DNA of 64,000 nt from Peristeroidobacter soli. Its GTDB lineage: Bacteria; Pseudomonadota; Gammaproteobacteria; Steroidobacterales; Steroidobacteraceae. The stretch is from NCBI RefSeq assembly GCF_004138485.1, contig NZ_RYEV01000004.1:494803-558802 (forward strand), written 5' to 3'. The notes under the pieces are model-generated. The model was not told the DNA's origin. It made no database searches and was given only the letters and a program-made list of their open reading frames with translations. Below, piece by piece: positions 2,652 through 33,097 of the stretch (within the stretch, counting starts at the first letter, position 1; each line of letters opens with the position of its first letter). The translations under genes and the position numbers were made by a program.

Positions 2652-2684
2652 ACGTTAGGCATTGATACTGTCGCCAACCTGTCA
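2652..2684 (-). promoter_or_regulatory. direct-repeat activator site A with -10 box
   Basis: On the minus strand: TGACAG (2684-2679), 5 nt, CGACAG (2673-2668), 10 nt, then TAACGT (2657-2652). The two hexamers are 11 bp apart, one helical turn, as for PhoB/OmpR-type dimers, and the second replaces a -35 box. It faces the binding-protein gene at 1512-2627 and lies in the divergent region before the response regulator. Four more copies occur at 4790, 10147, 14916 and 33065. Confidence 0.7.
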
Positions 2685-2703
2685 TGCAATTCGAGGCGTT
2701 CGC

Positions 2704-3372
2704 TTGGCCCGCATCCTGCTCGTCGAGGACGATCCTGCGCTACGCCGTGGCCTCGTGGCAACGCTGCGTGCCGCCGGCTATGCCGTGGACACCGCGGGCG
2801 ATGGCACTTCCGGCCTCGAGATCGCCCGCAAGGAGCCGTACGCGCTCATCATTCTGGATGTCGGCCTGCCCGGCATTTCCGGTTTCGAGGTGCTCAGACG
2901 GCTGCGCAAAGGGGGCACGAAAACGCCCATTCTGATCCTCACCGCACGCGATACGGTGCAGGACCGGGTCACCGGACTGGACCTGGGCGCGGACGACTAT
3001 CTGCTCAAGCCGTTCGAGCCGAACGAGCTGGAAGCGCGCATTCGCGCCCTGCTCCGCCGCTCGCAAGGCGATCCCTCGCCGGTCGTGACCATCGGCAACC
3101 TGGTCATCGATCATTCACTCGGCACGGCCACGGTCAACGGCCGCTTGCTCGAGCTGCGGCGACGCGAATGGGCCGTATTGGAGCGGCTCGCGGCACGTCC
3201 TGGCAAGCTGGTTGCCAAGGAACGATTGAGCGGCGAGGTCTTCGGCTTCGACGATGCGGTCGCGCCCAACGCCATCGAAGTCTACGTCGCGCGTCTGCGT
3301 AAGAAGCTCGAGCCCGACGGTCCGCAAATCCGCACGCTGCGCGGTCTGGGCTACATGCTCGATCCGTCCTGA
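2704..3372 (+). CDS. OmpR/PhoB-family response regulator (TctD/QseB-like)
   Basis: A 222-residue two-domain regulator. The receiver domain (about 1-115) has acidic pair D9-D10, phospho-acceptor D52 in LIILDVGLPG, T80 and K102. The C-terminal winged helix (about 125-220) ends YVARLRKKLE and RTLRGLGYML. I take TTG at 2704 as the start because the protein then begins ARILLVEDD like its family and GAGG precedes it by 8 nt; the frame is open further upstream. The stop overlaps the kinase start (TGATG), so the pair is co-translated. It is the obvious candidate to bind the five TGACAG direct repeats in this window. Confidence 0.92.
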   Translation: MARILLVEDDPALRRGLVATLRAAGYAVDTAGDGTSGLEIARKEPYALIILDVGLPGISGFEVLRRLRKGGTKTPILILTARDTVQDRVTGLDLGADDYLLKPFEPNELEARIRALLRRSQGDPSPVVTIGNLVIDHSLGTATVNGRLLELRRREWAVLERLAARPGKLVAKERLSGEVFGFDDAVAPNAIEVYVARLRKKLEPDGPQIRTLRGLGYMLDPS

Positions 3373-4787
3373 TGGTGGCCGTCAGCGGCATCGCCGCGCC
3401 CTCATCGCTCACCGGCCGCCTGTTTCGCGGGCTGGTGGCGCCAATGATCGGGCTCGCCCTGGTGCTCGGCGCGGGCGGCGCCTGGGCGATTCATAGCATC
3501 GTCGAGGCGGTGAACGATCGCTTGCTCGGTGCCTCGGCACGCGCCGTCGCCGAAACCCTCGAAGTCCAGGACGGCGCGATCACATTGGATCTGCCGCCGT
3601 GGGCGCTCGGCATGCTCGAAAACGCCTCTCGCGACAACATCTATTACAACGTGTTCGAAGGCGAGCGGCTGCTGACTGGCTATCCGCATCTGCCGCCGCC
3701 CCACGCCGGCGAGTTCGACCGGCGCAACACCACGTTCCGCTACGGCGAATACCGGGGTCAGCGCGTACGCATTGCCGCTGAAGCTCGCCGTTTGCCGCGC
3801 ATCGACACCCTCGTCGTCGTTCAGGTCGCAGAAACATTGGAAGCGCGGCGCGCCTTATCGAGGACCATGCTGATTCAGCTGGTGATGCTCGAAGTCGCGT
3901 TGATCGCCCTCGCCTCGCTGTTGATTCCCATCGGTGTGCGCTGGGGAATGGAGCCGCTCACGCACCTTCGCCGCGGCATCGATGCGCGCACCGCTTCCGA
4001 CTTCACGCCACTGCCCCTGGCCGAAGTTCCACGTGAGCTGCGCGATCTGGTGACGGCCTTCAATTCGCTGCTGTCACGACTGGACAGCGCGGTCGAAGGC
4101 ATGCGTCGATTCACGGCCGACGCCTCGCATCAGATGCGCACGCCACTGTCGATTCTGCGCACTCACATCGGCGTGCTGAAGACGCAGATCGAAGCAGGCG
4201 CGCGAGCCGAATCGATTGCGGATATCGAAGCAGCCACCGACCGGCTGCAGCGCCTGCTCATCCAACTGCTGACACTGGCACGTGCGGACGGCGCCGAGCC
4301 GTCCGGACTGGCACTCACCGAGATCGATGTCGGCGCCATCGCTCGCAGCGTCGCCGAAGAGCACGCACCGCAGGCGTTGCGCGCGGGGGGCGAAATGCAT
4401 TTGGCGGTCGAAGGCCGCGGCCCCTGGATCACGCGTGCCGACCCGGTTCTGCTCACCGAGTTGCTCAGCAACCTGGTCGACAACGCCGTGCGCTACAACG
4501 GCCATGGCGGCAACGTCATCGTGCGCGTCGTCGGTGAGAATGAGCATGTGGTCGTCGAAGTCGAGGACGACGGTCCCGGCATCCCGGTCGAGGAACGCGA
4601 TCAGGTATTCACGCGGTTTTACCGCCTGAGTCGCGACCAGAACCGCCCCGGCAGCGGCCTCGGATTATCCATCGTGCAGGTGCTGGCGCAGATTATGGAC
4701 GCACGCATCGAGCTGCTGAGCGGTCAGAGCGAGCGCGGCCTGCGGGTGCGCGTCATCTTCCGGCGACCTGTCGGCCAGCCCGAATAG
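3372..4787 (+). CDS. membrane sensor histidine kinase (TctE-like, 2CSK_N type)
   Basis: A 471-residue kinase for the regulator just upstream. A transmembrane helix at about 20-42, a periplasmic sensor region of about 120 residues resembling the two-component sensor-kinase N-terminal domain, and a second helix at about 167-188 precede a HAMP-like linker. The H-box has phospho-acceptor His253 (ADASHQMRTPLS), followed by the N-box (LLSNLVDNAVRYN), G1 (DDGPGIP) and G2 (GSGLGLSIV), all intact. The start codon overlaps the regulator's stop. In this subfamily ligands are usually tri- or dicarboxylates, sometimes sensed through a binding protein. That fits the neighbourhood but is inference. Confidence 0.92.
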   Translation: MVAVSGIAAPSSLTGRLFRGLVAPMIGLALVLGAGGAWAIHSIVEAVNDRLLGASARAVAETLEVQDGAITLDLPPWALGMLENASRDNIYYNVFEGERLLTGYPHLPPPHAGEFDRRNTTFRYGEYRGQRVRIAAEARRLPRIDTLVVVQVAETLEARRALSRTMLIQLVMLEVALIALASLLIPIGVRWGMEPLTHLRRGIDARTASDFTPLPLAEVPRELRDLVTAFNSLLSRLDSAVEGMRRFTADASHQMRTPLSILRTHIGVLKTQIEAGARAESIADIEAATDRLQRLLIQLLTLARADGAEPSGLALTEIDVGAIARSVAEEHAPQALRAGGEMHLAVEGRGPWITRADPVLLTELLSNLVDNAVRYNGHGGNVIVRVVGENEHVVVEVEDDGPGIPVEERDQVFTRFYRLSRDQNRPGSGLGLSIVQVLAQIMDARIELLSGQSERGLRVRVIFRRPVGQPE

Positions 4788-4789
4788 CA

Positions 4790-4822
4790 CGACAGCTTGC
4801 TGACAGCATCGACGCCTACCGT
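4790..4822 (+). promoter_or_regulatory. direct-repeat activator site B with -10 box
   Basis: CGACAG (4790-4795), 5 nt, TGACAG (4801-4806), 10 nt, TACCGT (4817-4822). Same geometry and spacing as site A. It begins 2 nt after the kinase stop and drives the rraA-like, barrel-protein and aconitase genes, with about 20 nt of leader before the ATG at 4844. Confidence 0.7.
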
Positions 4823-4843
4823 GCGCGCAGCAAGAGGTGTTGA

Positions 4844-5368
4844 ATGAGCCCCCTGACTGCAGATCTGGTCGACGCGCACGCCGACAGCCTGAGCGTCTGT
4901 AACGCGCAGTTTCACTCCTACGGCGGTCGTGCCCGATTCCATGGCCCGGTGCGCACGATCAAATGTTTCGAGGACAACCTCCTCATCAAACAAATCCTGG
5001 CCGTGCCGGGCAACGGCGCCGTGCTCGTGATCGACGGCGGCGCGTCGCTGCGCTGCTGCCTGCTGGGTGACTTCATGGCCGAGCTCGGCCACAAAAATGG
5101 CTGGGCGGGTCTCATCGTCTGGGGCGCGGTGCGCGATACCGTCGCCCTCGGCAAGCTCGACATCGGTCTGAAGGCCCTCGGCTCGAATCCCCGGCGCCCG
5201 ACCAAGACCGGCGCCGGTCTCATCGATGCACCGGTCGAATTCGGCGACGTCACTTTCCGCCCGGGCGATTGGGTCTACAGCGACGAGGACGGCATCGTGA
5301 TCAGCGATCACAGCCTGGTCCCCGTCGAGCGCACCGCTGCCACCGAGGTGTCCCGACATGCCTTCTGA
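4844..5368 (+). CDS. rraA: RraA/HMG-aldolase family protein
   Basis: A 174-residue RraA-fold protein: GGRARFHGPVRTIKCFEDN near the start, VLVIDGGASLR at about 60-70, and GWAGLIVWGAVRDT at 87-99. Members either inhibit RNase E (E. coli RraA) or are metal-dependent aldolases cleaving 4-hydroxy-4-methyl-2-oxoglutarate or 4-carboxy-4-hydroxy-2-oxoadipate to pyruvate. Aldolases carry an Arg-Asp pair at this loop, present here as R97-D98, whereas from memory E. coli RraA has Arg-Gln. Catalysis is therefore possible, and the linkage to an aconitase and a decarboxylating dehydrogenase favours a metabolic role. RBS AGAGG precedes the ATG. The gene overlaps the next by 11 nt. Confidence 0.85.
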   Translation: MSPLTADLVDAHADSLSVCNAQFHSYGGRARFHGPVRTIKCFEDNLLIKQILAVPGNGAVLVIDGGASLRCCLLGDFMAELGHKNGWAGLIVWGAVRDTVALGKLDIGLKALGSNPRRPTKTGAGLIDAPVEFGDVTFRPGDWVYSDEDGIVISDHSLVPVERTAATEVSRHAF

Positions 5369-6158
5369 TTCGCTCCCGAGCCTTCGCAATTCCCTGCTGG
5401 CGATCGTGCTCGGAGTGCTCTCCATCGTCGCAGTCACAACCAGCCCGCGCGCCGCGGCGGAAGAGCCCGCCGGCGGGCCGCTCAGCTTGCTCATCACCTA
5501 TCGCACCGCTCCCGTCGATCGTCCCGCCTTTCGCACCTACCTGCAAAAGGAAGGTCGCGCGCAGCTTGCGAAGCTGCAACGAGACGGCGCGATCAAGAGC
5601 TATCAGATTCTTTTCAATCCGTTCGCGCACGGCGGCACCTGGGATGCGATGACGGTCGTGAGTTTCGCGCGTTACACCGACACGCAGCGCTGGATGACGC
5701 TGGAGCAAACATCGCCCGGCGGACTGACCGCCGCCGGCACGCGCCTGGTGCAGACCATCGACACCTACTCCGCCGACCTCACCTGGCAGGGCGACGCGGA
5801 GAACGCCAGTCACGCCGACGCCATCTATTACGTGATTCCGTATGAGTTCGGCTCCGCCAGCGAGTATGAGAAATTCGTCGACGGCTACGTCCTGCCGCAG
5901 GTCAAGGGCTGGATGCAGGAAGGTGTCCTCGGCAGCTATCGCATCTTCATGAATCGCTATCCGGTCGGCCGCCCGTGGGACGCGCTGTTCATCTACGAAT
6001 ACCGCGACCTGGAAGCCTTCGGCAAACGCGCCGAGACGGTGACGAAAGTGCGCAGGACGCTGGAGAACGATTCGGTGTGGAAGCAGCTTCACGCCATCAA
6101 GCAGACCCTGCGTAGCGAGACCGAGAACACCATCGCCGTGTCGCTGGCTCAGCCCTGA
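5358..6158 (+). CDS. exported protein with two dimeric alpha/beta-barrel-like repeats
   Basis: A 266-residue protein with a signal peptide at about 1-35 (ending SPRAAA). It consists of two related halves. Each has a beta-strand start (LLITYRTAP, IYYVIPYEF), a helix, then a glycine turn and strand (SYQILFNPFAHGGTWDAM and SYRIFMNRYPVGRPWDAL), and a further strand. This layout looks like a tandem ferredoxin-like barrel (ABM/NIPSNAP/EthD-type), but I cannot place it in a named family. GAGG lies 9 nt before the ATG, and the frame starts inside the end of rraA, so translation is coupled. The aconitase gene follows after 8 bp. No catalytic residue can be claimed. Confidence 0.75.
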   Translation: MPSDSLPSLRNSLLAIVLGVLSIVAVTTSPRAAAEEPAGGPLSLLITYRTAPVDRPAFRTYLQKEGRAQLAKLQRDGAIKSYQILFNPFAHGGTWDAMTVVSFARYTDTQRWMTLEQTSPGGLTAAGTRLVQTIDTYSADLTWQGDAENASHADAIYYVIPYEFGSASEYEKFVDGYVLPQVKGWMQEGVLGSYRIFMNRYPVGRPWDALFIYEYRDLEAFGKRAETVTKVRRTLENDSVWKQLHAIKQTLRSETENTIAVSLAQP

Positions 6159-6166
6159 GCGATTCC

Positions 6167-8743: not shown

Positions 8744-8745
8744 CA

Positions 8746-8776
8746 CCTGTCAACCCTCAGTGGAGGGGTTGACAGG
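8746..8776. terminator. bidirectional hairpin between convergent genes
   Basis: CCTGTCAACCCTC pairs with GAGGGGTTGACAGG (one bulged G) around a 3-4 nt loop, between the aconitase stop at 8743 and the convergent cupin-remnant stop at 8778. There is no U-tract, so intrinsic termination may be weak, but the position fits a shared terminator. Confidence 0.6.
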
Positions 8777-8777
8777 C

Positions 8778-9044
8778 CTAAGCGACTGCCGGCGAACCGT
8801 GTTCGTCGTCGATGCTGCGCGTCTGGCCGGTCTCGACATTCGTCCGAGTCGCATCGACCGTCGAGTACGTCCACAGGATCCGCATCGGGACCGCCGCACC
8901 CGGATCGAAATCCGTGATGCCATTGATGAAACTCGTCGAGCCAACCCGCCGGGTGACCAGCGGAGTCGTTCGCACGCCGCCGCCCCGTGCCTTCGGCTCG
9001 ATCCGCGCGGGCCGCAGCACCGCAGGCTTCAGTTCCTGGGTCAT
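8778..9044 (-). pseudogene. cupin-domain protein lacking its metal-binding core
   Basis: An 88-codon frame whose N-terminus (RGGGVRTTPLVTRRVGSTSFINGITDFDPGAAVPM, quoted only in part) reads like the start of a small cupin, and whose C-terminus (RILWTYSTVDATRTNV) reads like a cupin end. The central strands with the HxH...E metal ligands are absent: the text runs straight from AAVPM to RILWTY. The frame is preserved, so this looks like an in-frame deletion of roughly 40-60 codons. It starts 10 nt after the dehydrogenase gene with RBS GAGGC and is co-transcribed with it. Loss of function is likely but not certain. Confidence 0.6.
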
Positions 9045-9054
9045 GATCGCTGCC

Positions 9055-10119
9055 TCACAACTCATCGATGGCGGCACACACGGCCGCCGTATAAGAGGTG
9101 GTATCCAGGTCGCCGCCGATATCGCGGGTCCGTGTCTTGGGATTGTCGATGACCCGATCGATGGCGGCCGCGATCCGCGCGCCGGCCTGGATCAGATCCT
9201 CGCGCCCGTCACGACGACCGCGCCAGTCGAGCAGCATGCCGGCGGAAAGAATCAGCGACGTCGGATTCGCGACGTTGCGGCCGGCGATGTCCGGCGCCGA
9301 ACCGTGCTGTGCCTGAGCGACACAAATATCGTCGCCGGCATTGATCGATCCGCCCAATCCCAGGCTGCCCGACAGTTCAGCCGCCTCATCCGAGAGAATG
9401 TCGCCGAACATGTTGGTAGTGACAATGACATCGAAACGTTCCGGCGAGCGGATCAACAGCGCCGCGGTGGCATCGACGATCAACTCTTCCAGTTGAACGT
9501 CCGGATACTGCTGCGCGACCTTGCGCACTTCGCGCAGAAACAACCCGTCGGACAGCTTCAGCACGTTCGCCTTATGCACCGCCGTCACCTTGCGACGACG
9601 ACCTCGCGCGATCTCGAATGCCGCGCGCGCCACGCGCTGCGAAGCGCGAGCCGTGATCTTTCGAACGGCCAGTGCCATGTTTTCGTCCGGCATGAACTCG
9701 CCGCTGCCCGCATGCATGTTGCGATCGGCATAGAAGCCTTCGGTGTTCTCTCGCACGATGATCAGATCCATTGCCTTCGGCAGCACGCTGACCCCGGGAC
9801 GTGAACGACTCGGCCGGAGGTTCGCGTAGAGATCGAACACCACGCGCAGCTCGGCCGATTGATTGATGCCGCCTTGCTGCCGGCTCGGATAGTCGTAGTG
9901 CGACACCGGCCCGAGAATGACGCCGTCCACCTCGGGGATTCGTTTCATGACCGCCGACGGCAGCGTCGTTTGCTGCGACTTCAGCGTCGCCAGGCCGATG
10001 TCCCGCACGTCCAGATCCAGGCGCAACGAAAATTTCCGGTCGACCGCGGCGAGCACGTCGATGGTCGCCCGGGTGATTTCAGGACCGATGCCGTCGCCGG
10101 GAAGGATGAGAATCTTCAT
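9055..10119 (-). CDS. isocitrate/isopropylmalate dehydrogenase family protein
   Basis: A 354-residue beta-decarboxylating dehydrogenase, NAD(P)- and divalent-metal-dependent. It begins MKILILPGDGIGPEI and has RENTEGFYAD, the catalytic Lys region (TAVHKANVLKLSDGLF), the metal-binding TTNMFGDILSDEAAEL and the cofactor region GSAPDIAGRNVANPTS. Length is that of 3-isopropylmalate or short isocitrate/homoisocitrate/tartrate dehydrogenases; the substrate cannot be fixed. The open frame extends upstream into the divergent gene, but homology begins at 10119. No clear RBS is seen; the leader would be about 20 nt from the site C promoter. No leuCD neighbours occur, so a catabolic role beside the aconitase is more likely than leucine synthesis. 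Confidence 0.85.
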   Translation of the reverse strand: MKILILPGDGIGPEITRATIDVLAAVDRKFSLRLDLDVRDIGLATLKSQQTTLPSAVMKRIPEVDGVILGPVSHYDYPSRQQGGINQSAELRVVFDLYANLRPSRSRPGVSVLPKAMDLIIVRENTEGFYADRNMHAGSGEFMPDENMALAVRKITARASQRVARAAFEIARGRRRKVTAVHKANVLKLSDGLFLREVRKVAQQYPDVQLEELIVDATAALLIRSPERFDVIVTTNMFGDILSDEAAELSGSLGLGGSINAGDDICVAQAQHGSAPDIAGRNVANPTSLILSAGMLLDWRGRRDGREDLIQAGARIAAAIDRVIDNPKTRTRDIGGDLDTTSYTAAVCAAIDEL

Positions 10120-10146
10120 GGGATCCGATAAGAGTGAGGCGCGTTT

Positions 10147-10179
10147 ACTCTGCGACGGCAAGCTGTCACCGAGCTGTCG
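10147..10179 (-). promoter_or_regulatory. direct-repeat activator site C with -10 box
   Basis: On the minus strand: CGACAG (10179-10174), 5 nt, TGACAG (10168-10163), 10 nt, CAGAGT (10152-10147). Same 11-bp repeat and 10-nt gap as sites A, B and D. It faces the dehydrogenase gene; the divergent lipoprotein gene starts 80 bp away. Confidence 0.65.
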
Positions 10180-10258
10180 CCCGCGCGCGCCGAAGTTCGC
10201 TGGCCGACACGCCCGGGAGTCGTTACATTCGCGCTCACGAGCAGCAAGCGAGCCGCCG

Positions 10259-11527
10259 ATGACGACAAGAAACATTTCATACGCCGGCCTTTCCGTGCTC
10301 GTGCTCGGTCTCGCCGGCTGCGCGACCCTGCCGGAATCCCGCTCGCAGAACGATGGGCGATTCTTTTCGGCCTGGGCCGCGCCGCAGGGTCGGCTCGCGG
10401 AGCAGGCTCCCGCGCTCGATGACGCCGCCGTGCGAGTCGTCGTTCGGCCGACCATCGGCGGCTCGGCCGTACGCATCAAGATCGAGAACACCGTGGCGGC
10501 CACGCCGGTCTCGTTCGCCGCTGCGTACCTCGGTGTGCTCGATCGAGGTGCAACCGTGATGAGTGGCACCAACCGAGCGTTGACGTTCGACGGGCAGTCG
10601 ACGCTGACGCTCGCGCCCGGCGCCGGCTCGTACAGCGATCCGATCGATTTTCCCGTGCGCGCATTCGAACGTCTGGCAATCAGCCTCGCGGTACAGTCGG
10701 CCGAGGAAATCAGCACTCACGCACTTGGCCTCGCGACGACCTACTACGCGCCGGGACACAGCGCCGAGGCGGAATCCGGTGCCGCCTTCGTACCGTTGCC
10801 GACGCTGGCGCAAGGCGTCGTTTCGTTTCCTGTGTACTGGGTTGCGGCACTCGATGTGCAATCGACAGCCACTCGCGGCACGATCGTGACCCTCGGCGAT
10901 TCCATCACCGACGGCCGCTGCAGCACGACCGACAGCACGGGCAAAGTCATCCCGGATTTGTATCAGCGCTGGCCGGACGTGCTCGCCGCGCGCCTGGCAC
11001 CGTTGCCGCCCGCCTATCCCAAAGCCGTTGCGAACGCCGGGATCGCCGGCAATCGCATTTTGCAGGACGGACCGACCGGGCCGTCGGCGCTGTCTCGTCT
11101 GGATCGTGACGTGCTCGACCGCGCCGGCGTCACGCATGTCATTCTGTTCGAAGGGACCAACGACATTCATCGAGGCGCAACGTCCACTGAGCTGATCGCC
11201 GGCACGCAGGAGATCATCGATCGCGTGCACGCTCGCGGCGTCAAGATCATCGGTGCCACTCTCCTTCCTCGCGGCAAACCGGCGGAGGCTCCGGGTGAAG
11301 GCTTCGACGCGCCCCAGGAACGCCATCGCCTCGACTACAACGAGTGGGTTCGCAAGCAAGCGAATTTCGATGGTGTCATCGACTTCGACGCAGTAATGGC
11401 CGGCGGCGGCGTTTCTCCGACCGGTGCACAGATCATGAAGCGCTTGTACAGCTGCGACTTCGTGCACCCGAATGCGGCGGGACTGCGCGCGCTCGGAGAC
11501 GCTATCGACCTGCGTTTGTTCGAGTGA
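10259..11527 (+). CDS. GDSL/SGNH-family lipoprotein esterase
   Basis: A 422-residue exported hydrolase. The signal ends in a lipobox (LAGC, Cys21), so it is lipid-anchored. Residues about 30-190 form an N-terminal accessory domain. The SGNH hydrolase domain follows with block I GDSITDG (Ser215), block II GIAGNRIL, block III FEGTNDI and block V DFVHPNAAG (catalytic Asp and His). These are typical of secreted esterases that remove acyl groups from sugars or polysaccharides. The ATG at 10259 is chosen for the lipobox; the frame is open upstream. It is divergent from the site C operon and converges on the gene at 11597. The natural ester is unknown. Confidence 0.85.
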   Translation: MTTRNISYAGLSVLVLGLAGCATLPESRSQNDGRFFSAWAAPQGRLAEQAPALDDAAVRVVVRPTIGGSAVRIKIENTVAATPVSFAAAYLGVLDRGATVMSGTNRALTFDGQSTLTLAPGAGSYSDPIDFPVRAFERLAISLAVQSAEEISTHALGLATTYYAPGHSAEAESGAAFVPLPTLAQGVVSFPVYWVAALDVQSTATRGTIVTLGDSITDGRCSTTDSTGKVIPDLYQRWPDVLAARLAPLPPAYPKAVANAGIAGNRILQDGPTGPSALSRLDRDVLDRAGVTHVILFEGTNDIHRGATSTELIAGTQEIIDRVHARGVKIIGATLLPRGKPAEAPGEGFDAPQERHRLDYNEWVRKQANFDGVIDFDAVMAGGGVSPTGAQIMKRLYSCDFVHPNAAGLRALGDAIDLRLFE

Positions 11528-11557
11528 GCGCCGCGCTGAACGAACGGCACGGCGCTC
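11526..11557. terminator. hairpin between convergent genes
   Basis: GAGCGCCG (11526-11533) pairs perfectly with CGGCGCTC (11550-11557), with a 16-nt loop, straddling the stop of the GDSL gene and lying before the convergent stop at 11597. No U-tract, so this is a modest candidate. Confidence 0.4.
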
Positions 11558-11596
11558 AGATCCGCAGCAGCCAGCGGCGCGGGCCGGCGGCTCGAC

Positions 11597-13240: not shown

Positions 13241-13248
13241 CGTTTTGC

Positions 13249-14820
13249 TCAGGTCCAGGTCGCAACCAGCGGCGGCAGGCGTGACTCGGCCGAATTGAGA
13301 TTCACGCTGCGATCGATCGTCACGCTGTTCGCGTTGAACGTGCACAGCAATGTGTCTCGGAACGCGGTCTCCACGAACTGCCACGTCATCTCCAATCGAT
13401 TGGGCGCGAGCCAGCGGGCACCAGCCACCACCGCCTGATTCTTGGGCCGATATTCATGATGCAGCCGATGGCCGGTCATGCTGGTGTGCTGTTCGAAATA
13501 TTCCGCGAGGCCCGCCGTGATCTCATGCACGCCCTCGTCATCGCTCATGCGATAGGTGCATGCGCCTTCGATGAAGTCGAAGCAGACCCACTGCACCGAC
13601 TGATCGTTGGTCTGCACCGTGAGCTTCTTGCCGTTGAGCTTGGCCGCGAGCGGCGAATCTGTCCTCGTCAATGGCGACAGTAGATGCAGCTGCGCGGTGC
13701 GTTGCGCCAGCTGTCTGGCCACGGGACTGGCAGGCAACCGGGCAGCGCCCAGCGCCGCCGGAAAATGTTTCCAGAGCAGCGACTTGAGTTTCTGACTGCC
13801 CTTGATCGCGGCAAACACCGCCAGCGACGTGTCGTGCTTGGGAAACACCACGGTCATCTGCGTGAACAGGCCCAGCGCGTAGTACGCACTATCGGGTCCC
13901 ATCCACCATTGGTAGCCGTACGCGCCGCTCGCATCGCCATCCGCTTGTCGGGTGGTTGCGGCCCGCACCCACTTTTCCGACAGCACACGGTTGCCGTTCC
14001 ACTCGCCGAGTTGCGAATGCAGCGCGCCGAGCTTCACCGATGCGGACGTGTTCCAGCTGAGGCCGTTGCCGCCGGGACTGATGCCGCCAGGACTCGTGTC
14101 CCACTGCCAGCGCGTGATACCCATGGGCTCGAAGAAGCGCGGCCGCAAGTACTCCGCCATCGACATCCCGGTCGTCTTGGTGACGATGGCGGACAGCATG
14201 TAGCTCGCCGCGCTGGTGTATTGGAAATGCGTGCCGGGCACATGCTCGACCGGAATCTTGAAGAACTCGGCGACCCAACTGGTCGGGATCGGACGCCACA
14301 GCGAGCCCGAGGTCTCCCGGGCGTGTCCGCAACGCATGGTCAGCAGGTCGCTTACCGTCATCGCGCGCAGGTTCGCGCTGGCATTCGCCGGCACGAATTC
14401 GGGGAAGAGCGAGACCACCTTGTCCTGCAGGTCGAATCGCCCTTCGTCGACGGCCAGCCCGGCCGCGACGGCGGTGACGCTCTTGGTCAGCGAATGCGTG
14501 ATGTGCACGCGATCGGCGCGGTACGGCCACCACCATCCTTCGGCGATGACGTGCCGACTGCGCATCAACATGAAGCTGTGGAGCTCCAGGCCGGCGGCCG
14601 CCACTTCGTCCATGAACGCGAGAATCGCCGCCGAGGAAACGCCCTGCTCTTCGGGCGTGCTGCGAACCAGGCCGTCCCGGTAGGTGCCGTCGGCATGAAC
14701 CGGGGCAACGCCCTGCGGCAGATCGCTCGACGCGCTCACCCTGGCGATGGCGCCGTCGACGAGCCAGTACGCGCTGCCGCCCAGGACCAGAGTGCCGAAG
14801 CGGCGACGGGACAATTGCAT
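13249..14820 (-). CDS. Tat-exported beta-lactamase-fold serine hydrolase
   Basis: A 523-residue class C beta-lactamase/penicillin-binding-protein-like hydrolase. The N-terminus has a twin-arginine signal (LSRRRFGTLVLGG). The catalytic SxxK is S110-L-T-K113, and the tyrosine motif is Y201-T-S instead of the usual Y-x-N. A C-terminal domain of about 150 residues follows. Most such environmental proteins are esterases or D-aminopeptidases rather than resistance enzymes. It is the first gene of a two-gene unit, divergent from the citrate transporter; site D lies in the shared 180-bp region but points the other way. RBS near the ATG is weak (GGAGGAC on the far side is not usable). Confidence 0.82.
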   Translation of the reverse strand: MQLSRRRFGTLVLGGSAYWLVDGAIARVSASSDLPQGVAPVHADGTYRDGLVRSTPEEQGVSSAAILAFMDEVAAAGLELHSFMLMRSRHVIAEGWWWPYRADRVHITHSLTKSVTAVAAGLAVDEGRFDLQDKVVSLFPEFVPANASANLRAMTVSDLLTMRCGHARETSGSLWRPIPTSWVAEFFKIPVEHVPGTHFQYTSAASYMLSAIVTKTTGMSMAEYLRPRFFEPMGITRWQWDTSPGGISPGGNGLSWNTSASVKLGALHSQLGEWNGNRVLSEKWVRAATTRQADGDASGAYGYQWWMGPDSAYYALGLFTQMTVVFPKHDTSLAVFAAIKGSQKLKSLLWKHFPAALGAARLPASPVARQLAQRTAQLHLLSPLTRTDSPLAAKLNGKKLTVQTNDQSVQWVCFDFIEGACTYRMSDDEGVHEITAGLAEYFEQHTSMTGHRLHHEYRPKNQAVVAGARWLAPNRLEMTWQFVETAFRDTLLCTFNANSVTIDRSVNLNSAESRLPPLVATWT

Positions 14821-14915
14821 GGAGGACTACCGCCTGGTGGATTCGCAGTGATATCGCGATGTTGAAAGTACAAGCTTTCACGAGCCTGTCGCGCGCCGAC
14901 GCAACGGCGCTTCGT

Positions 14916-14948
14916 TGACAGCCTGATGACAGCCGCCGCCCCTAGCAT
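14916..14948 (+). promoter_or_regulatory. direct-repeat activator site D with -10 box
   Basis: TGACAG (14916-14921), 5 nt, TGACAG (14927-14932), 10 nt, TAGCAT (14943-14948). Both hexamers are perfect. It faces the CitMHS transporter gene, with about 45 nt of leader. Confidence 0.75.
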
Positions 14949-15000: not shown

Positions 15001-16311
15001 ATGCTGGCAATTTTGGCATTCACGATGATCGCCACGTTCATGACCCTGATCATGACCAAGCGACTGTCGGCGCTGGTGGCGCTGATCCTGGTACCGACCC
15101 TGTTCGCGCTCGGCATGGGCTTCACCGCCGGCCTGGGCGAGATGATGATCGCCGGGGTGCGCGAGCTGGCACCGACCGGCGTGATGCTGATCTTCGGCAT
15201 CCTCTACTTCGGGCTGATGATCGACGCGGGCCTGTTCGATCCGCTCATCAAGCTGATCGTGCGACTCGTGCACGGCGATGCCCTGCGCATCACCATCGGC
15301 ACCGTGGTGCTCGCCCTGCTGGTCTCGCTCGATGGCGACGGCACGACGACCTACATGATCACCACCGCCGCGCTGCTGCCGTTGTATCGGCACATGAAGA
15401 TGGACGTACGCATCATGGCCTGCCTGATCATCCTCTCGGGCGCGGTGATGAATCTGTTGCCCTGGGGCGGACCGACCGCGCGTGCGGCCACGGCCCTCAA
15501 TCTGGATCCTCGCGACGTGTTCGTCGGCCTGATCCCGGCGATGGCGGTGACCGCCGGCTGGGTCCTGGTGGTTGCCTGGATATTCGGCCTGCGCGAACGC
15601 AAGCGGCTGGCCGCGCTCCATCAGGCTGCAGGCACTGACACGAGCGGCGAAGCGGTGGTCGCTCAGGATGCGGGCGATGTGAACGCAAGGCGTCCGCGCC
15701 TGATGTGGCTCAATCTGCTGCTGACCGCCGTGCTGATGACTTGCCTGCTGCTGGGCATGTTGCCGCTCGCCATTCTGTTCATGCTCGGCTTCGCAGTGGC
15801 GCTGATGATCAACTATCCGTCACTCCAGCAGCAGCGCGAACGCATCAACGCGCATGCGGGCAACGCGCTGGCGGTCGCGGGATTGGTCTTCGCCGCGGGC
15901 ATCTTCACCGGCATTCTGTCGGGAACGGAGATGATCGATGCGATGGCGGACACCATCATCGCCTGCATCCCGCCCGCGCTCGGCCCCTACATGGCGCCGA
16001 TCACGGCGTTGTTGAGCATGCCCTTCACGTTTCTGATTTCGAACGACGCGTTCTACTTCGGCATGCTGCCCATCCTGGCCAGGACCGGCGCCGAGTACGG
16101 CATCAGTGCCATGGACATGGCGCAGGCCTCGCTGGTCGGCCAGCAGATTCATTTGCTCAGCCCGCTGGTCCCCTCGACGTACCTGCTCGCCACCATGGCG
16201 GGCGTCGAGTTCGGCGAGCATCAGCGCTTCACCATGAAGTGGGCGCTGGGCAGTTGTGCCATATTCCTGCCCGCCTGCCTGTTGCTGGGCATTTTCCCTC
16301 TGGCCGTCTGA
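15001..16311 (+). CDS. CitMHS-family citrate/proton symporter
   Basis: A 436-residue inner-membrane transporter with about 11-12 hydrophobic segments. Family marks include SLDGDGTTTYMIT at about 101-113, LPWGGPTARAA and, near the end, FLISNDAFYFGMLPIL and LVGQQIHLLSPLVPST. CitMHS proteins import citrate complexed with Mg or other divalent metals by proton symport. It stands alone on the plus strand behind the site D promoter and is followed 16 bp later by an M20 peptidase gene. Its place in a regulon with an aconitase and a TctDE-like system strongly suggests that the system handles citrate or a similar tricarboxylate. Confidence 0.92.
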   Translation: MLAILAFTMIATFMTLIMTKRLSALVALILVPTLFALGMGFTAGLGEMMIAGVRELAPTGVMLIFGILYFGLMIDAGLFDPLIKLIVRLVHGDALRITIGTVVLALLVSLDGDGTTTYMITTAALLPLYRHMKMDVRIMACLIILSGAVMNLLPWGGPTARAATALNLDPRDVFVGLIPAMAVTAGWVLVVAWIFGLRERKRLAALHQAAGTDTSGEAVVAQDAGDVNARRPRLMWLNLLLTAVLMTCLLLGMLPLAILFMLGFAVALMINYPSLQQQRERINAHAGNALAVAGLVFAAGIFTGILSGTEMIDAMADTIIACIPPALGPYMAPITALLSMPFTFLISNDAFYFGMLPILARTGAEYGISAMDMAQASLVGQQIHLLSPLVPSTYLLATMAGVEFGEHQRFTMKWALGSCAIFLPACLLLGIFPLAV

Positions 16312-16327
16312 CTGTCTCGCCCCTGAC

Positions 16328-17794
16328 ATGATCAAGCCATTGCAACGTCGGCCCCCGCGCCTCCTGCCCTTACTGAGCGCCGCCCTGCTGGCGGGCACCT
16401 CGCTCCAGGCACAGCCGTCGCAGTCGGCGGACTGCGAATCGTGCTTCCGAGACTTGTATGAGGAACTGGTCGAGACCAACACCACGTTGTCCAGCGGCGA
16501 TTGCACGCTCGCCTCCGAGCGCATGTCTTCTCGGCTTCAGGCCGCGGGCTACCCGGGCGCCGACGTGCGCGTCGTCGTGCCGGAGAAATTTCCCAAGCAA
16601 GGCAATCTGGTCGCTCGCTTGAGCGGCACCGATGCCTCGCTGCCAGCGGTGCTACTGCTCGCTCACATCGACACCGTCGAGGCCAAGCGCTCCGACTGGG
16701 CTCGTGATCCATTCGTGCTGGTCGAAGAGAACGGTTATCTCTACGCGCGAGGCGCCATCGACGACAAGGCGATGGCGGCGGCATTCGTCGATGCACTCAT
16801 TCGCCTGCGCAAGGAGGGCTTCCGTCCCCGGCGCACGGTGAAGCTGGCGCTGACCTGCGGCGAGGAGACCGATAGTTTCTTCAACGGCGTGCAGTATCTG
16901 CTGGCGACCGAGCCCGAGACCCTGCAGGCCGGCTGGGTGGTGAACGAAGGCGGCAAAGGCCAGCTCGACGAACGGGGCCAGCCGGTGTCGTTCGGCATTC
17001 AGACCGGCGAGAAGGTCTACCAGGACTTCAAGCTCGTCACGACCTCTCCCGGCGGTCACAGCGCGCGCCCCACCGAGGACAATGCGATCGATCGGCTCGC
17101 AGCCGCGCTGGTGCGCGTCGGCTCCTACAAATTCCCGGTGAATCTCACGCCGGTCAGCCAGGAGTTTTTCCGGCGCGCGGCCTTTCTGTATCCGGGCCGG
17201 ACCGGCGCCGACATGGCCGCGATCGGCGCCGGTACAGCGGATGAGGCGACGTATGAGCGCATCGGCAAGGTCGATCGGTTGTGGAATGCTTTGCTGCGCA
17301 CCACGTGCATCTCGACCCGGATCGACGGCGGCCACGCGAAGAACGCGCAACCTCAGCATGTCGAAGCCAACATCAATTGCCGCATCCTGCCGGGCGAGCC
17401 GGTCGAGTCGATTCGAGCCAGGCTCGAAGCGCTGATTGCCGATCCGAAAGTGTCGCTCAGCCTGTCCGATGCGCCGGGCCCGCAATCCGCCGCGCCGCCG
17501 CTGACCCCGCAAATCCTGCGGCCCGTGGAGGAAATCGTCGCCGAGATGTGGCCCGGGGTGCCGGTGATTCCGACCCTCAGCACCGGCGCGACCGACGGCC
17601 GCTTCTTGAACGCGGCGGGCATTGCGACGTATGGGATCTCCGGCGTGTTCGTGGATCCCGACGGCAACGGCGTGCACGGCCTCGACGAGCGCGTGCGGGT
17701 GAAGTCGTTGATGGATGCTCGCGTGTTCCTGTATCGCCTGGTCAAGGCGTATGCAGCAGGCCGCGCGGGAACTCCATCCCCGCTGCCTCATTGA
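16328..17794 (+). CDS. exported M20-family metallopeptidase
   Basis: A 488-residue zinc peptidase. A signal peptide occupies about 1-30. Dinuclear metal ligands are all visible: His and Asp in LLLAHIDTV, Asp in ARGAIDDKAM, the Glu pair in TCGEETDS, Glu in VVNEGGKG and the final His in GVHGLDERV. A dimerisation domain is inserted at about 210-330 (TTSPGGHSARP). Members cleave dipeptides or amino-acyl amides; the Cys-x-x-Cys at 36-39 of the mature N-terminus is unusual. It lies 16 bp behind the citrate transporter and may be read from the same promoter. Start chosen at the ATG giving a clean signal sequence. Confidence 0.88.
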   Translation: MIKPLQRRPPRLLPLLSAALLAGTSLQAQPSQSADCESCFRDLYEELVETNTTLSSGDCTLASERMSSRLQAAGYPGADVRVVVPEKFPKQGNLVARLSGTDASLPAVLLLAHIDTVEAKRSDWARDPFVLVEENGYLYARGAIDDKAMAAAFVDALIRLRKEGFRPRRTVKLALTCGEETDSFFNGVQYLLATEPETLQAGWVVNEGGKGQLDERGQPVSFGIQTGEKVYQDFKLVTTSPGGHSARPTEDNAIDRLAAALVRVGSYKFPVNLTPVSQEFFRRAAFLYPGRTGADMAAIGAGTADEATYERIGKVDRLWNALLRTTCISTRIDGGHAKNAQPQHVEANINCRILPGEPVESIRARLEALIADPKVSLSLSDAPGPQSAAPPLTPQILRPVEEIVAEMWPGVPVIPTLSTGATDGRFLNAAGIATYGISGVFVDPDGNGVHGLDERVRVKSLMDARVFLYRLVKAYAAGRAGTPSPLPH

Positions 17795-18422: not shown

Positions 18423-18433
18423 ATCAGTAAAGT

Positions 18434-19213: not shown

Positions 19214-19216
19214 AAC

Positions 19217-21526: not shown

Positions 21527-21598
21527 ACATAGGTTAGCTGCGCGACGCGATGCGTCGTCCGCGTTCATCCCGCACCCAATCAAAATAGCACCTACGCC

Positions 21599-21626: not shown

Positions 21627-21666
21627 CAACTCGCACAATTTACAAGTCAGAAGTTCGGGTGCGAAC

Positions 21667-28180: not shown

Positions 28181-28983
28181 GATCTGGATCCGCCGCGCTG
28201 TGTTTGTCATCTCTCGCGCTCGCCGCGTCGGCCAGCGCCGCCGAAATCGATGCGCGCCCGTTCGATAAACTGACCTTGAGCGGCAGCTATTCGACGTTCA
28301 AGGACACCGACGACGAAGGCGGTGGCGCCTCCGCCGGCTATCTGCATTACTTCACGCCGGACGTCCTCGCCGGCCTGGGCATCGACCATACCTACGTCGA
28401 GGATGCGAAGCTGACCTACGGCTCGGTGCGAGCGGCCTGGGGTCGCGGCGATCCGGCCTCGCGATTCACAGTGGTCGGCGAGTACTACAACGGCGAGGGT
28501 GACGACAACGGGCGCAAATTCGACTACGGCGTCGGCGTGCTGGCCATCAGCCAGGCACTCACCAGCAAATTCTCGCTTCAGCTCGAGACCCGCCAGATCG
28601 ACATCGACACCACCCACGGCAATCTGCCCAAGCTCGGTGTGACTTACGTGTGGTCGCCGCGCGTCGTGACGAACGTTGCCTACGCCAAATCGGTGAGCGG
28701 CAATCTGGGCACCGAGCTCACCAGCGCGCGCCTGGACTATTTCGGCAAGCACATCAATTTCCTGATCGGCGGCTCGACGGGTACCGCCAACCCCGCGGTC
28801 CTGGTCTTGCAGCCCGGCGTCGTGCTGCCCGCGAGCCAATCGAAGGAAGGCTTCGTCGGCATCGGCAAGACCTTCAAGCGCGGCGACGTGACGTTGCTCG
28901 GCGACTACCTCGACGTCTCGGGCAGCGAGAAATACACCGTGACCTTGAGCTTCACGGCCTATCTGGGCGCGCGGGGCCAATGA
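28177..28983 (+). CDS. outer-membrane beta-barrel protein
   Basis: A 268-residue exported protein: signal peptide 1-22 (ending ASASAA), then alternating strands rich in Tyr, Gly and Asp such as LTLSGSYSTFKD, YLHYFTPDVLAGLGIDHTYV, RFTVVGEYYNGEGDD, LGVTYVWSPRVVTNVAYA and, at the end, YTVTLSFTAYLGARG. The pattern and terminal aromatic-rich strand suggest a 10-12 strand barrel, possibly a channel. ATGA overlap with the PAS protein gene and with the following GGDEF-EAL gene. This is the second barrel protein of the cluster; no named porin family is recognised. Confidence 0.78.
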   Translation: MRSGSAALCLSSLALAASASAAEIDARPFDKLTLSGSYSTFKDTDDEGGGASAGYLHYFTPDVLAGLGIDHTYVEDAKLTYGSVRAAWGRGDPASRFTVVGEYYNGEGDDNGRKFDYGVGVLAISQALTSKFSLQLETRQIDIDTTHGNLPKLGVTYVWSPRVVTNVAYAKSVSGNLGTELTSARLDYFGKHINFLIGGSTGTANPAVLVLQPGVVLPASQSKEGFVGIGKTFKRGDVTLLGDYLDVSGSEKYTVTLSFTAYLGARGQ

Positions 28984-31079: not shown

Positions 31080-31143
31080 AGCCGGCGCGCGGTCTAGAAC
31101 CGCCGTGCGATTTTCATCGTCTCCAGCCCCGCTGAATTAGGTA

Positions 31144-31195
31144 CCTGGGACCGGAATCGAACCGGTACGGAATAGCCAGGAACCGGCGCTGGATT
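31144..31195 (-). tRNA. 3' remnant of a tRNA-Leu-like gene (partial)
   Basis: On the minus strand the sequence contains AATCCAGC (like the 3' side of a Leu anticodon stem), a variable segment, the T arm ACCGG-TTCGATT-CCGGT (perfect 5-bp stem) and an acceptor 3' strand CCCAGGT followed by A, CC. No matching acceptor 5' strand or D arm is present upstream on that strand, so this is a truncated gene and not a functional tRNA. It may be a duplicated attachment-site remnant of an integrated element, or a decayed tRNA gene. The isotype is inferred from memory of Leu tRNA 3' halves. Confidence 0.5.
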
Positions 31196-31245
31196 GGGCC
31201 ACGGCAGGCAGCCTATCATCGGCCCTTTCCCGCTCCGAGTCCTCA

Positions 31246-33078
31246 ATGGCCCCCGAACACGATTCCAACATGCTGGTCAGCGCCGTCGCCTTGCTGGGCG
31301 CCGCCGTCATCGCCGTGCCCCTCTTCAAGCGGCTCGGCCTCGGCTCGGTGCTGGGCTATCTCGCGGCCGGCCTGTTGATCGGTCCCTTCGGCCTGGGTCT
31401 GTTCTCCGATCCGCACGCCATCCTGCAATTCGCCGAGCTCGGCGTGGTGATGTTCCTGTTCATCATCGGCCTGGAGATGCGTCCGTCGCATCTGTGGCAC
31501 CTGCGACGACAGATTTTCGGCCTGGGAACGCTGCAGATCGCGGCCTGCACACTCGGCCTCACCGGCGTCGGCATGGCTTTCGGATTCTCGCCGGTGGTGG
31601 CTTTCATCGGCGGCGCCGGCTTCGTGCTCACCTCCACCGCCATCGTCATGCAGCTGCTCGCCGAGCGCGGCGACATCGCTCTGCCTCATGGGCAGAAGAT
31701 GGTCTCGGTGCTGCTGTTCGAGGATCTGTTGATCGTGCCGTTGCTGGCGCTCGTCAGCTTCCTGTCGCCGACGGTCGCGACCGAAACGAGCACGCCGCAT
31801 TGGATTTCCATATTGATGGGCGTCGCATCGCTCGCAGGCTTGATCGCCGCCGGCGTATGGTTGCTCAATCCTCTCTTCAGCATTCTGGCGCTGGCTCGCA
31901 CGCGTGAAGTCATGTCGGCCGCGGCGCTGCTCGTGGTGCTGGGCTCGGCGCTGTTGATGGAAATGGGCGGGCTGTCGATGGCGATGGGCGCGTTCCTCGC
32001 CGGCGTGCTGTTGTCCGAGTCGACGTTCCGTCATCAGCTCGAAGCGGATGTCGAGCCCTTCCGCGGCTTGTTGCTGGGCCTGTTCTTCCTGGCCGTCGGC
32101 ATGAGCCTCGATCTCAAAGTGGTCTCCGAGAACTGGGCACTGATCGCCGCCGCCGTGCCGGCCATGATGGCGATGAAAGCGCTGTGTATCTATCTCGTGG
32201 CGCGAGCGACGCGCAGCTCACATCACGAAGCGCTGGATCGCGCCGTGCTGATGGCCCAAGGTGGCGAATTCGCGTTCGTCCTGTACGGTGCCGCCGCCGC
32301 GACCGGCCTCATCGATGAAACCGTCAACGCCAACATGACCGCGATCGTCGTGCTCTCGATGGTGTTGACGCCGCTGGTCGTGATCGTGATCCGACGCTTC
32401 ATCAAACCCGCCAGCCAGTCCATGGATGGCATTCCCATCGCGGAGGGGCTCGAAGGCAGCGTGCTCATGATCGGCTTCGGACGTTTCGGCCAGGTCGTCA
32501 GTCAGGCGTTGCTCGCCCGCGGGGTCGATGTGAGCATCATCGATGCCGATGTCGAAATGATCCGTGCCGCTCAACAGTTCGGCTTCACCGTGTACTACGG
32601 CGATGGCACGCGACTGGACGTCTTGCGAGCATCGGGCGCCGGCAAGGCACGCCAGATCGCCGTCTGCGTCGAGAGTCGAGCGACCGCCGATCGTATCGTC
32701 GAGCTGGTGCGCTCCGAGTTTCCGCAAGCGCAGCTGCTGGTGCGTGCCTACGATCGTGAGCATGCGCGGTTGCTGGTCGGCGCGGGGGTCGACTATCAGA
32801 TCAGAGAAACATTCGAGTCGGCGCTGCAAGCCGGTGGCGCCGCGCTACGCCTGCTCGAGGTGAGCGAATCGGAGATCGCCGACATTCTCACCGGCATCCG
32901 CGAGCGCGACGCGGAGCGCTTCGCCCTCGAAATCGCCGGCGGCGGCTATGAAGCCGGCATCGGCATGCTGTTACGGAACACGCCACAGGCGCCCTCGCGC
33001 CCGACGCCGTTCAGCAAGCCGCGCACGGCAGGCAAGGCACTCAACGAATTGCCCGCCGAGGGCATGACAGCTCGGTGA
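31246..33078 (+). CDS. Kef-type monovalent cation:proton antiporter (CPA2) with RCK domain
   Basis: A 610-residue inner-membrane protein. About 12-13 helices fill 1-385, with family motifs FIIGLEMRP, FEDLLIVPLLAL, FLAGVLLSES and the acidic pore residues typical of CPA2 antiporters. A cytosolic RCK_N NAD-binding domain follows at about 405-530 (VLMIGFGRFGQVV, YYGDGTRLDVLRASG). It should extrude K+ (or another cation) in exchange for protons; KefB and KefC are the closest characterised type. The C-terminal 50 residues are Pro-rich and unconserved. Direct-repeat site E overlaps the end of this gene but serves the next one. A start at 31270 is also possible. Confidence 0.9.
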   Translation: MAPEHDSNMLVSAVALLGAAVIAVPLFKRLGLGSVLGYLAAGLLIGPFGLGLFSDPHAILQFAELGVVMFLFIIGLEMRPSHLWHLRRQIFGLGTLQIAACTLGLTGVGMAFGFSPVVAFIGGAGFVLTSTAIVMQLLAERGDIALPHGQKMVSVLLFEDLLIVPLLALVSFLSPTVATETSTPHWISILMGVASLAGLIAAGVWLLNPLFSILALARTREVMSAAALLVVLGSALLMEMGGLSMAMGAFLAGVLLSESTFRHQLEADVEPFRGLLLGLFFLAVGMSLDLKVVSENWALIAAAVPAMMAMKALCIYLVARATRSSHHEALDRAVLMAQGGEFAFVLYGAAAATGLIDETVNANMTAIVVLSMVLTPLVVIVIRRFIKPASQSMDGIPIAEGLEGSVLMIGFGRFGQVVSQALLARGVDVSIIDADVEMIRAAQQFGFTVYYGDGTRLDVLRASGAGKARQIAVCVESRATADRIVELVRSEFPQAQLLVRAYDREHARLLVGAGVDYQIRETFESALQAGGAALRLLEVSESEIADILTGIRERDAERFALEIAGGGYEAGIGMLLRNTPQAPSRPTPFSKPRTAGKALNELPAEGMTAR

Positions 33079-33097
33079 CAGTATTCAGGATCATCGT
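33065..33097 (+). promoter_or_regulatory. direct-repeat activator site E with -10-like box
   Basis: TGACAG (33065-33070), 5 nt, TGACAG (33076-33081), 10 nt, CATCGT (33092-33097). The repeats are perfect; the -10-like box is weaker than at sites A-D. It overlaps the last codons of the antiporter and faces the TonB-dependent receptor, about 60 nt before its ATG. Confidence 0.68.

What the first reader, a model, noticed from the sequence alone, without database searches (positions are those of the whole stretch)
2652..33097. Five identical-geometry direct repeats mark a regulon
TGACAG (or CGACAG), 5 bp, TGACAG (or CGACAG), 10 bp, then a -10-like hexamer (TAACGT, TACCGT, CAGAGT, TAGCAT, CATCGT) occurs at 2652-2684 (-), 4790-4822 (+), 10147-10179 (-), 14916-14948 (+) and 33065-33097 (+). 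Each copy is in a promoter region and points toward the nearest gene: binding protein, rraA-barrel-aconitase, dehydrogenase-cupin, citrate transporter, TonB receptor. The 11-bp repeat and its fixed 10-nt distance to the -10 are the geometry of PhoB/OmpR-type activators that replace a -35. The only such regulator here is the TctD-like one, whose gene flanks the first site. The regulon appears to take up and break down a tricarboxylate such as (ferric) citrate. I know of no published description of this box for a TctD-type regulator.
Basis: partly seen in the sequence, partly recalled or inferred. Interest (0 to 1): 0.85.

Follow-up and report, generated by a model that had tools for sequence, protein, structure and literature searches.

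The report
Citrate-gene switch box of TctD-type regulator
Six promoters in a cluster of citrate-uptake and citrate-breakdown genes carry the same double DNA tag, and the same kind of tag sits beside related regulators in many proteobacteria, so it is very probably the docking site by which one sensor-regulator pair switches the whole cluster on.

Summary
All five repeats are where stated. In the 9.37 Mb genome the full pattern with its -10 occurs five times without mismatch, all in this cluster.

Of 48 named loci with a homologous binding protein divergent from a homologous regulator, 41 carry the box within one mismatch, against at most 2 for other spacings or the reverse orientation. Classical tctC/tctD loci, porin-tctC ones included, carry the same geometry with TGAAAG. 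The -10 at +10/+11 appears without being selected for. A recognition-helix residue and base 4 co-segregate, but with a single inferred switch.

Corrections: a TctD motif for P. aeruginosa is published as a logo (PMC4513871; letters not readable here). The regulator misses NCBI's TctD cut-off. The binding protein is ABC-type without a close ABC partner. The cupin gene is shortened. The repeat is also a Pho box in reverse; lineage evidence argues against PhoB, but no experiment was possible. New variant of a known kind.

The parts
2652..2684 (-). Box 1, TGACAG-GTTGG-CGACAG-N10-TAACGT, drives the solute-binding protein gene
   Evidence: Exact; PWM from other genomes 31.7, best in window; same place in 41 of 48 divergent SBP/RR loci within one mismatch
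4790..4822 (+). Box 2, CGACAG-CTTGC-TGACAG-N10-TACCGT, 2 bp after the kinase stop codon, drives rraA-like / 266-aa protein / aconitase
   Evidence: Exact; PWM 29.9; a box just behind the kinase gene recurs in L089, L096, L099, L104
10147..10179 (-). Box 3, CGACAG-CTCGG-TGACAG-N10-CAGAGT, drives the isocitrate/isopropylmalate-type dehydrogenase
   Evidence: Exact; PWM 31.1
14859..14891 (-).
   Evidence: searches (listed with 2 mismatches to TGACAG twice; 1 mismatch), PWM 26.7; L100, L104 and L115 also carry a box before this gene
14916..14948 (+). Box 4, TGACAG-CCTGA-TGACAG-N10-TAGCAT, drives the CitMHS transporter
   Evidence: Exact; PWM 31.5; box within one mismatch before the citM gene at all 7 other family places where it adjoins the binding protein
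33065..33097 (+). Box 5, TGACAG-CTCGG-TGACAG-N10-CATCGT, overlaps the end of the upstream gene and drives the TonB receptor
   Evidence: Exact; PWM 23.3, weakest of the six; weaker boxes before the homologous receptor in L100 (18.2) and L115 (15.6)
1512..2627 (-). Solute-binding protein (SBP_bac_8/6), only match in the genome; start may be 2591
2698..3372 (+). OmpR/PhoB-type response regulator, TctD/PmrA-like, proposed binder (likely GTG start 2698, read by hand)
   Evidence: closest solved relatives BasR/PmrA
3372..4787 (+). Histidine kinase with 2CSK_N sensor domain (TctE-like)
   Evidence: PF08521 2e-34
4844..5368 (+). RraA-family protein; no homologue found in L089, L099, L100, L104, L115
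   Evidence: 213 bits, cut-off 136
5358..6158 (+). 266-aa protein without Pfam match; partial homologue in L100 and L115
6167..8743 (+). Aconitase AcnA
8778..9077 (-). Shortened cupin frame; 52 residues of the core present in L100 are absent here
9055..10119 (-). Iso_dh family dehydrogenase
13249..14820 (-). Beta-lactamase-fold serine hydrolase
   Evidence: homologues in L100, L104, L115 and own paralogue L248
15001..16311 (+). CitMHS citrate:proton symporter
   Evidence: TIGR00784, 550 bits, cut-off 260
16256..17794 (+). M20 peptidase downstream of citM; homologue beside the kinase gene in L099, L100, L104, L115
33123..35384 (+). TonB-dependent siderophore-type receptor (ATG possibly 33162)

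Best explanation
The repeats are operators of the linked TctD-like response regulator. A tricarboxylate (most likely citrate) in the periplasm, perhaps presented by the lone solute-binding protein, acts on the 2CSK_N kinase; the phosphorylated regulator dimerises and its two DNA-binding domains sit head to tail on the two half-sites 11 bp apart; the box covers the place of a missing -35 element, and with a -10 placed 10-11 bp downstream the bound dimer recruits sigma-70 polymerase. Six promoters are switched on together: binding protein, RraA-like/aconitase, dehydrogenase, serine hydrolase, citrate symporter and TonB receptor, giving uptake through both membranes and entry into the TCA cycle. 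Shown by sequence: sites, geometry, clustering, conservation with regulator and target genes across genera. Inferred: binding, activation sign, ligand, role of the binding protein.
For: Genome-wide specificity: the only 5 perfect full matches in 9.37 Mb are these. A matrix without window sites recovers all six. Spacing specificity: 73 matches of YGAMAG-N5-YGAMAG in 100 loci against 0-8 at spacings 1-4 and 6-12 and 19 at spacing 0. Place and orientation: 41 of 48 divergent SBP/RR loci with at most 1 mismatch against at most 2 for controls. Linkage control: of 13 citM places in 11 family genomes, the 7 next to the binding protein and the window's own have the box (6 exact, 2 with one mismatch); of the 5 others none is exact and one (L174) has one mismatch, scoring 6.1 by the matrix; two of the 5 are paralogues in the same genome. 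Classical tctC stretches: 35 of 40 have a match with base 4 left free; 12 of the 40 have an OprD-type porin by similarity to L213, and all 12 carry TGAAAG-type boxes. -10: TAnnnT at +10 in 18 of 38 and +11 in 3 of 38 Asn-clade sites (6 of the 38 are the window's), at +10 or +11 in 25 of 34 Asp/Glu-clade sites, at most 1 at any other offset from 4 to 19. The residue that co-segregates with base 4 aligns with PmrA Asn188, which is inserted in the major groove for base-specific recognition (PMC4660055, passage). Gene set SBP, RR, HK, CitM, Acn, IDH, TonB, BLA, M20: 9 of 9 found in L100 and L115, 8 in L099, 7 in L104.
Against: No binding or expression data. Helix residue and box base switch only once on the tree, with one independent pair, so the co-segregation is a single event, not independent confirmation. 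TGACAG-N5-TGACAG is the reverse complement of the PhoB repeat core. 7 of 48 divergent loci lack the box at that place, and 4 of these (L090, L094, L097, L109) have no exact copy in the locus. 5 of 40 tctC stretches have no match, and in L232 and L239 the match is not clearly at the tctC promoter. 14 of 111 regulators were dropped from the tree comparison for want of a clear box. Sites 3, 5 and 6 have poor -10 hexamers. L099, L100 and L115 have no box before the binding-protein gene (3 mismatches at best). The TonB box overlaps the last codons of another gene. Many loci are from congeners, and some family loci look like the same genomes as L100 and L115 (same box letters), so counts overstate independence.
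Confidence: 0.85

Rival explanations
1. The repeats are Pho boxes in the opposite orientation, bound by PhoB and tied to phosphate starvation.
For: TGACAG-N5-TGACAG read on the other strand is CTGTCA-N5-CTGTCA, the core of the PhoB repeat; in P. aeruginosa PhoB and TctD share promoters with inverse effects (PMC4513871, passages).
Against: In the Asp/Glu/Gln clade 69 of 71 boxes have A at base 4 of both half-sites, which is no Pho box, yet place, spacing and -10 stay; the -10 lies on the other side than in a PhoB promoter (orientation of PhoB promoters recalled); the sites follow the regulator gene and tricarboxylate genes; a 3.9-kb stretch around this genome's pstS shows no CTGTCA-N5-CTGTCA within 2 mismatches, so no Pho box of this genome was available for comparison.
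Confidence: 0.06
2. Another OmpR-type regulator of the genome (for example one of the two other 2CSK_N systems) binds the box.
For: Three 2CSK_N kinases exist in the genome; the repeat behind one of them, CGTCAG-N5-TGTAAG-N10-TACTGT, is similar and scores 19.9 with the matrix.
Against: That repeat differs at base 3, a base that also differs next to a separate regulator group (L239-L242); a 6-kb stretch with the third system shows no box (best 5.3); the box travels with homologues of the window's regulator.
Confidence: 0.06
3. Chance direct repeats in GC-rich DNA.
For: Half-sites are not rare: 111 matches with up to 2 mismatches against 90 for the control.
Against: Perfect full matches occur only here; 9e-12 clustering; recovery by a matrix from other genomes.
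Confidence: 0.005
4. The operators are real, but the regulator mainly represses these genes, or the cluster serves another acid (for example an aconitate-like, tricarballylate-like or citrate-conjugate compound).
For: TctD counteracts PhoB activation at some P. aeruginosa promoters (PMC4513871); serine hydrolase, M20 peptidase and siderophore-type receptor suggest a conjugated substrate.
Against: No consensus -35 and a fixed -10 argue for activation; CitMHS and aconitase point to citrate.
Confidence: 0.25

Closest known systems
TctD/TctE of Pseudomonas aeruginosa (opdH-tctCBA), Bielecki et al. 2015, PMC4513871
   Same: That TctE has a 2CSK_N domain is recalled
   Different: Half-site TGAAAG, Asp or Glu in the helix, TctC-type binding protein; here TGACAG, Asn, CitMHS symporter, TonB receptor, orphan ABC-type binding protein. 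Identity of the published logo with this box could not be checked
PmrA/BasR box
   Same: Closest solved regulator (8jo2, 4s04); two half-sites separated by 5 bp, head-to-tail dimer, -35 at the half-1 site (PMC3973317, PMC4660055, passages)
   Different: Half-sites CTTAAT and CCTAAG; other genes
PhoB Pho box
   Same: Direct repeat with about the same period, replaces -35
   Different: Opposite strand relative to the -10 (recalled for PhoB); phosphate genes
SBP-linked TctDE-like loci of Azospirillum, Burkholderia, Chromobacterium, Pandoraea
   Same: SBP, RR and HK in one locus with the box before the SBP
   Different: In L083 (Azospirillum) and L111 (Burkholderia) the SBP is followed by ABC permease and ATPase

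Membership tests
TctD (NCBIfam NF012023 equivalog) | Whole-protein score at or above 337 bits | tested here: not met
   225.0 bits, though the best of the models matched
TctDE-type two-component system | OmpR-type regulator next to a kinase with 2CSK_N domain | tested here: met
   PF00072+PF00486 and PF08521+HisKA+HATPase
TctDE-type two-component system | Controls a tctC/tctCBA operon | tested here: not met
   The TctC query has no hit among window frames; a CitMHS symporter takes its place
TctD-type operator | Two YGAMAG half-sites, 5-bp spacer, -10 at +10/+11, at promoters linked to TctD-like regulators | tested here: met
   (this definition was derived here)
TctD-type operator | Match to the published P. 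aeruginosa TctD logo | not testable with these tools
   The logo is a figure and not held
TctD-type operator | Bound by the purified regulator | not testable with these tools
   Needs footprint or DAP-seq
PhoB / Pho regulon | Regulator reaches TIGR02154 cut-off of 296.2 bits | tested here: not met
   161.4 bits
PhoB / Pho regulon | CTGTCA repeat reading towards the gene with the -10 downstream | tested here: not met
   All six boxes read TGACAG, CGACAG or TGAAAG towards the gene
PmrA | NF007928 cut-off 330 bits; CTTAAG-like half-sites | tested here: not met
   210.8 bits; half-sites differ

The most novel reading that the evidence does not exclude
TctD-like regulators of proteobacteria read an 11-bp direct repeat whose half-site is set by two recognition-helix positions: the PmrA Asn188-equivalent picks base 4 (Asn for C, Asp or Glu for A), and the residue four places on picks base 3 (Val, Ile or Leu for A, Gln for T). 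If so, the targets of very many TctDE-like systems can be read from the regulator sequence, and the window shows a lineage in which the box has spread over six promoters while the binding protein lost its ABC transporter and remained as a co-sensor.
Probability: 0.4. Interest if true: 0.65.

Novelty: new variant of a known kind. Interest (0 to 1): 0.55.

Why it matters
It gives an operator and a small, coherent regulon for a widespread but little studied branch of citrate-linked two-component systems, and a sequence rule (spacing, orientation, -10 distance, base 4) that can be scanned for in proteobacterial genomes. It also offers a test case of how a Pho-box-like repeat in reverse is kept apart from PhoB, and of a binding protein that may have changed from transport to sensing.

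Tried and rejected
A first TctD family search with E <= 1e-75 found 2 of 274 genomes, too strict; it was replaced by a tctC alignment. Co-segregation of helix residue and base looked decisive until the tree showed one change and one independent pair, also after adding 37 regulators; it is reported as consistent, not as proof. Pho box near pstS: nothing within 2 mismatches in 3.9 kb. Exact hits outside the window: four in long frames, one in a small gap. A one-mismatch hit in L250, scoring 20.4, lies inside a TonB-receptor frame and was set aside; L051 and L062 (17.5 each) were not followed. PMC9426598 came up for TGAAAG, but only in primers. PMC8041468 names TctD twice; none of the 12 passages shown gives its motif. 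Published letters for a TctD box were not found in searches (open-licence papers only; TGACAG was not used as a search term; search listings plus the passages named below); the logo of PMC4513871 is a figure that is not held.

Papers: PMC4513871, PMC8041468, PMC9426598, PMC10865840, PMC4660055, PMC3973317: passages only (found by terms, some from the abstract); all other papers: search listing only.

Full report
OBSERVATION. The five repeats are present exactly as written. The genome holding the window (9,374,132 bases, 17 contigs) has 10 copies of YGACAG-N5-YGACAG, 5 of them in this 30-kb stretch, and 9 copies of the backward control. With the -10 added there are 5 perfect copies, all here; 10 more have one mismatch, and 111 in all have up to two, against 90 for the control. 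The rate outside the cluster gives a chance of 9e-12 for five in 30.4 kb. A weight matrix built from 32 distinct sites in other genomes, none from the window, ranks six window places on top with scores 31.7 to 23.3, then drops to 9.8. The sixth, 14859-14891 (-), is divergent from the citM box and faces a beta-lactamase-fold hydrolase gene.

GENES. Pfam and NCBIfam give: solute-binding protein of the ABC type; OmpR-type regulator; kinase with 2CSK_N; RraA-family protein; a 266-aa protein without match; AcnA; Iso_dh-family dehydrogenase; serine hydrolase; CitMHS symporter (550 bits, cut-off 260); TonB siderophore-type receptor (226.5 bits, cut-off 223.5). An M20 peptidase follows citM. The regulator is the only OmpR-type one found in the window. 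The binding protein has one match in the genome. The cupin frame behind the dehydrogenase gene lacks 52 core residues that the L100 homologue has.

RELATIVES. Of 150 family genomes, 35 had a match to the binding protein at E <= 0.001, and 7 (own included) a strong one, at E <= 4.3e-64; all six relatives with a strong one carry a box with at most one mismatch within their locus, and citM is in the locus too. By my criterion 48 of 80 have a regulator divergent from and next to the binding protein; of these 27 have an exact and 41 an at most one-mismatch box pointing at the binding-protein gene, while spacings 2-4 and 6-9 in both orientations and spacing 5 in the reverse one give 0 exact and at most 2 of 48. 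Of the other 32, 12 are exact and 14 within one mismatch, against at most 3 for controls; nine of the 12 are Burkholderia loci whose regulator lies about 3 kb away. The seven divergent loci without it are L089, L090, L094, L097, L100, L109 and L134; L089, L100 and L134 carry exact boxes elsewhere in the locus. Over 100 loci (1,660,143 bases, some from the same genomes) YGAMAG repeats occur 73 times at spacing 5, 19 times at spacing 0 and 0-8 times at every other spacing up to 12.

GENE SET. Of nine window proteins (SBP, RR, HK, CitM, Acn, IDH, TonB, BLA, M20) all nine have homologues in L100 and L115 (metagenome genomes), eight in L099 (Sphingosinicella, no BLA) and seven in L104 (Sphingopyxis, no Acn or IDH) within the fetched 21 kb, at 48-70% identity; RraA has none in these, and the 266-aa protein only partial ones in L100 and L115. 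In L100 and L115 boxes lie before citM and the hydrolase, and weaker ones (18.2, 15.6) before the TonB receptor. Boxes just behind the kinase gene recur in L089, L096, L099 and L104, as box 2 does here. Among 13 citM places in 11 of 217 family genomes, the 8 that belong to such loci (7 next to the binding protein, plus the window's own) have the box within one mismatch, 6 of them exactly; the 5 others have no exact box, and the one with a single mismatch scores 6.1 by the matrix. One of the five (L174/L248) is a TonB-hydrolase-citM run of genes in the same genome that has no box (best 7.2) and lies within about 4 kb of an ECF sigma factor gene.

CLASSICAL TctD. I fetched 40 stretches of about 9 kb around tctC, one from each of 38 of the 57 matching genomes and 2 of the 7. 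Of these, 35 have a repeat with base 4 left free; L229, L240, L241, L242 and L245 have none, and in L232 and L239 the match is not clearly the tctC promoter. Twelve of the 40 have an OprD-type porin (L213 by Pfam; L207-L209 and L214-L221 by similarity to it), and all 12 carry TGAAAG-type boxes; L213-L215 read TGAAAG-N5-YGAAAG-N10-TAGCAT. Seven of the 40 (L207-L209, L212-L215) have three half-sites in a row.

MECHANISM. When only the half-sites are used for selection, TA...T still appears at +10 (18 of 38 Asn-clade sites, six of the 38 being the window's; 11 of 34 Asp/Glu sites) and +11 (3 and 14), and at most once at any other offset from 4 to 19. No consensus sigma-70 promoter is found at the five boxes of the first 18 kb. 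This is the PhoB/PmrA arrangement in which the -35 lies at a half-site (PMC4660055, passages). The regulator's closest solved relatives are BasR/PmrA; in PmrA the two half-sites are also 5 bp apart (PMC3973317, passages). Across 97 regulators with a clear box, Asn at the position aligned to PmrA Asn188 goes with at least one C at base 4 in 25 of 26, while Asp, Glu or Gln goes with A in both half-sites in 69 of 71; the two exceptions (L138, L147) are third, upstream copies. The tree infers one switch, so this is one event; 14 of 111 regulators were left out for lack of a clear box. Four regulators (L239-L242) are the only ones of 111 with Gln four places further on; their four stretches hold three YGTCAG repeats at spacing 5 (L239, L240, L242), none at spacings 0-4 and 6-11 and one at 12. 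Only the repeat of L240 is followed by a good -10.

WHAT IS INFERRED. Binding by this regulator, activation rather than repression, citrate as the signal, and a sensing role of the binding protein are inferences. In L083 and L111 the binding protein is followed by ABC permease and ATPase; the window frames hold no homologue of either L083 protein at E <= 1e-3, and the genome's best match to that permease is 25% identical, E 7e-13, elsewhere. This is why a co-sensor role is proposed.

NOVELTY. A TctD motif exists as a logo for P. aeruginosa. What appears new here, as far as the searches named in Tried and rejected show, is the TGACAG variant, its six-promoter regulon with a symporter, TonB receptor and hydrolase, and the rule across genera. 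New variant of a known kind.

Noticed in passing
window 8778-9077 (-): The cupin frame behind the dehydrogenase gene lacks about 52 core residues present in the L100 homologue and is not recognised by Pfam; possibly a recent in-frame deletion or a decayed gene.
   Followed up: partly
L248 (G000:C1:417000-430000): A second TonB receptor - serine hydrolase - CitMHS run in the same genome, without the box and within about 4 kb of an ECF sigma factor gene: the same module, perhaps under a different kind of control.
   Followed up: partly
L247:5717-5749 (+): Another 2CSK_N system of the genome has a repeat CGTCAG-N5-TGTAAG-N10-TACTGT at the end of its kinase gene, before a DUF6515 gene: a further half-site variant.
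   Followed up: partly
L239-L242: Regulators with Asn and Gln in the helix (NAVEQ/NAIEQ) lie beside YGTCAG repeats at spacing 5 in three of four stretches, suggesting that the Gln reads base 3.
   Followed up: partly
L207-L209, L212-L215: Seven of the 40 tctC stretches carry three half-sites 11 bp apart instead of two.
   Followed up: no
window 9917-11527 (+): A GDSL-type lipase frame overlaps box 3 and the dehydrogenase start on the other strand; its true start probably lies downstream.
   Followed up: no
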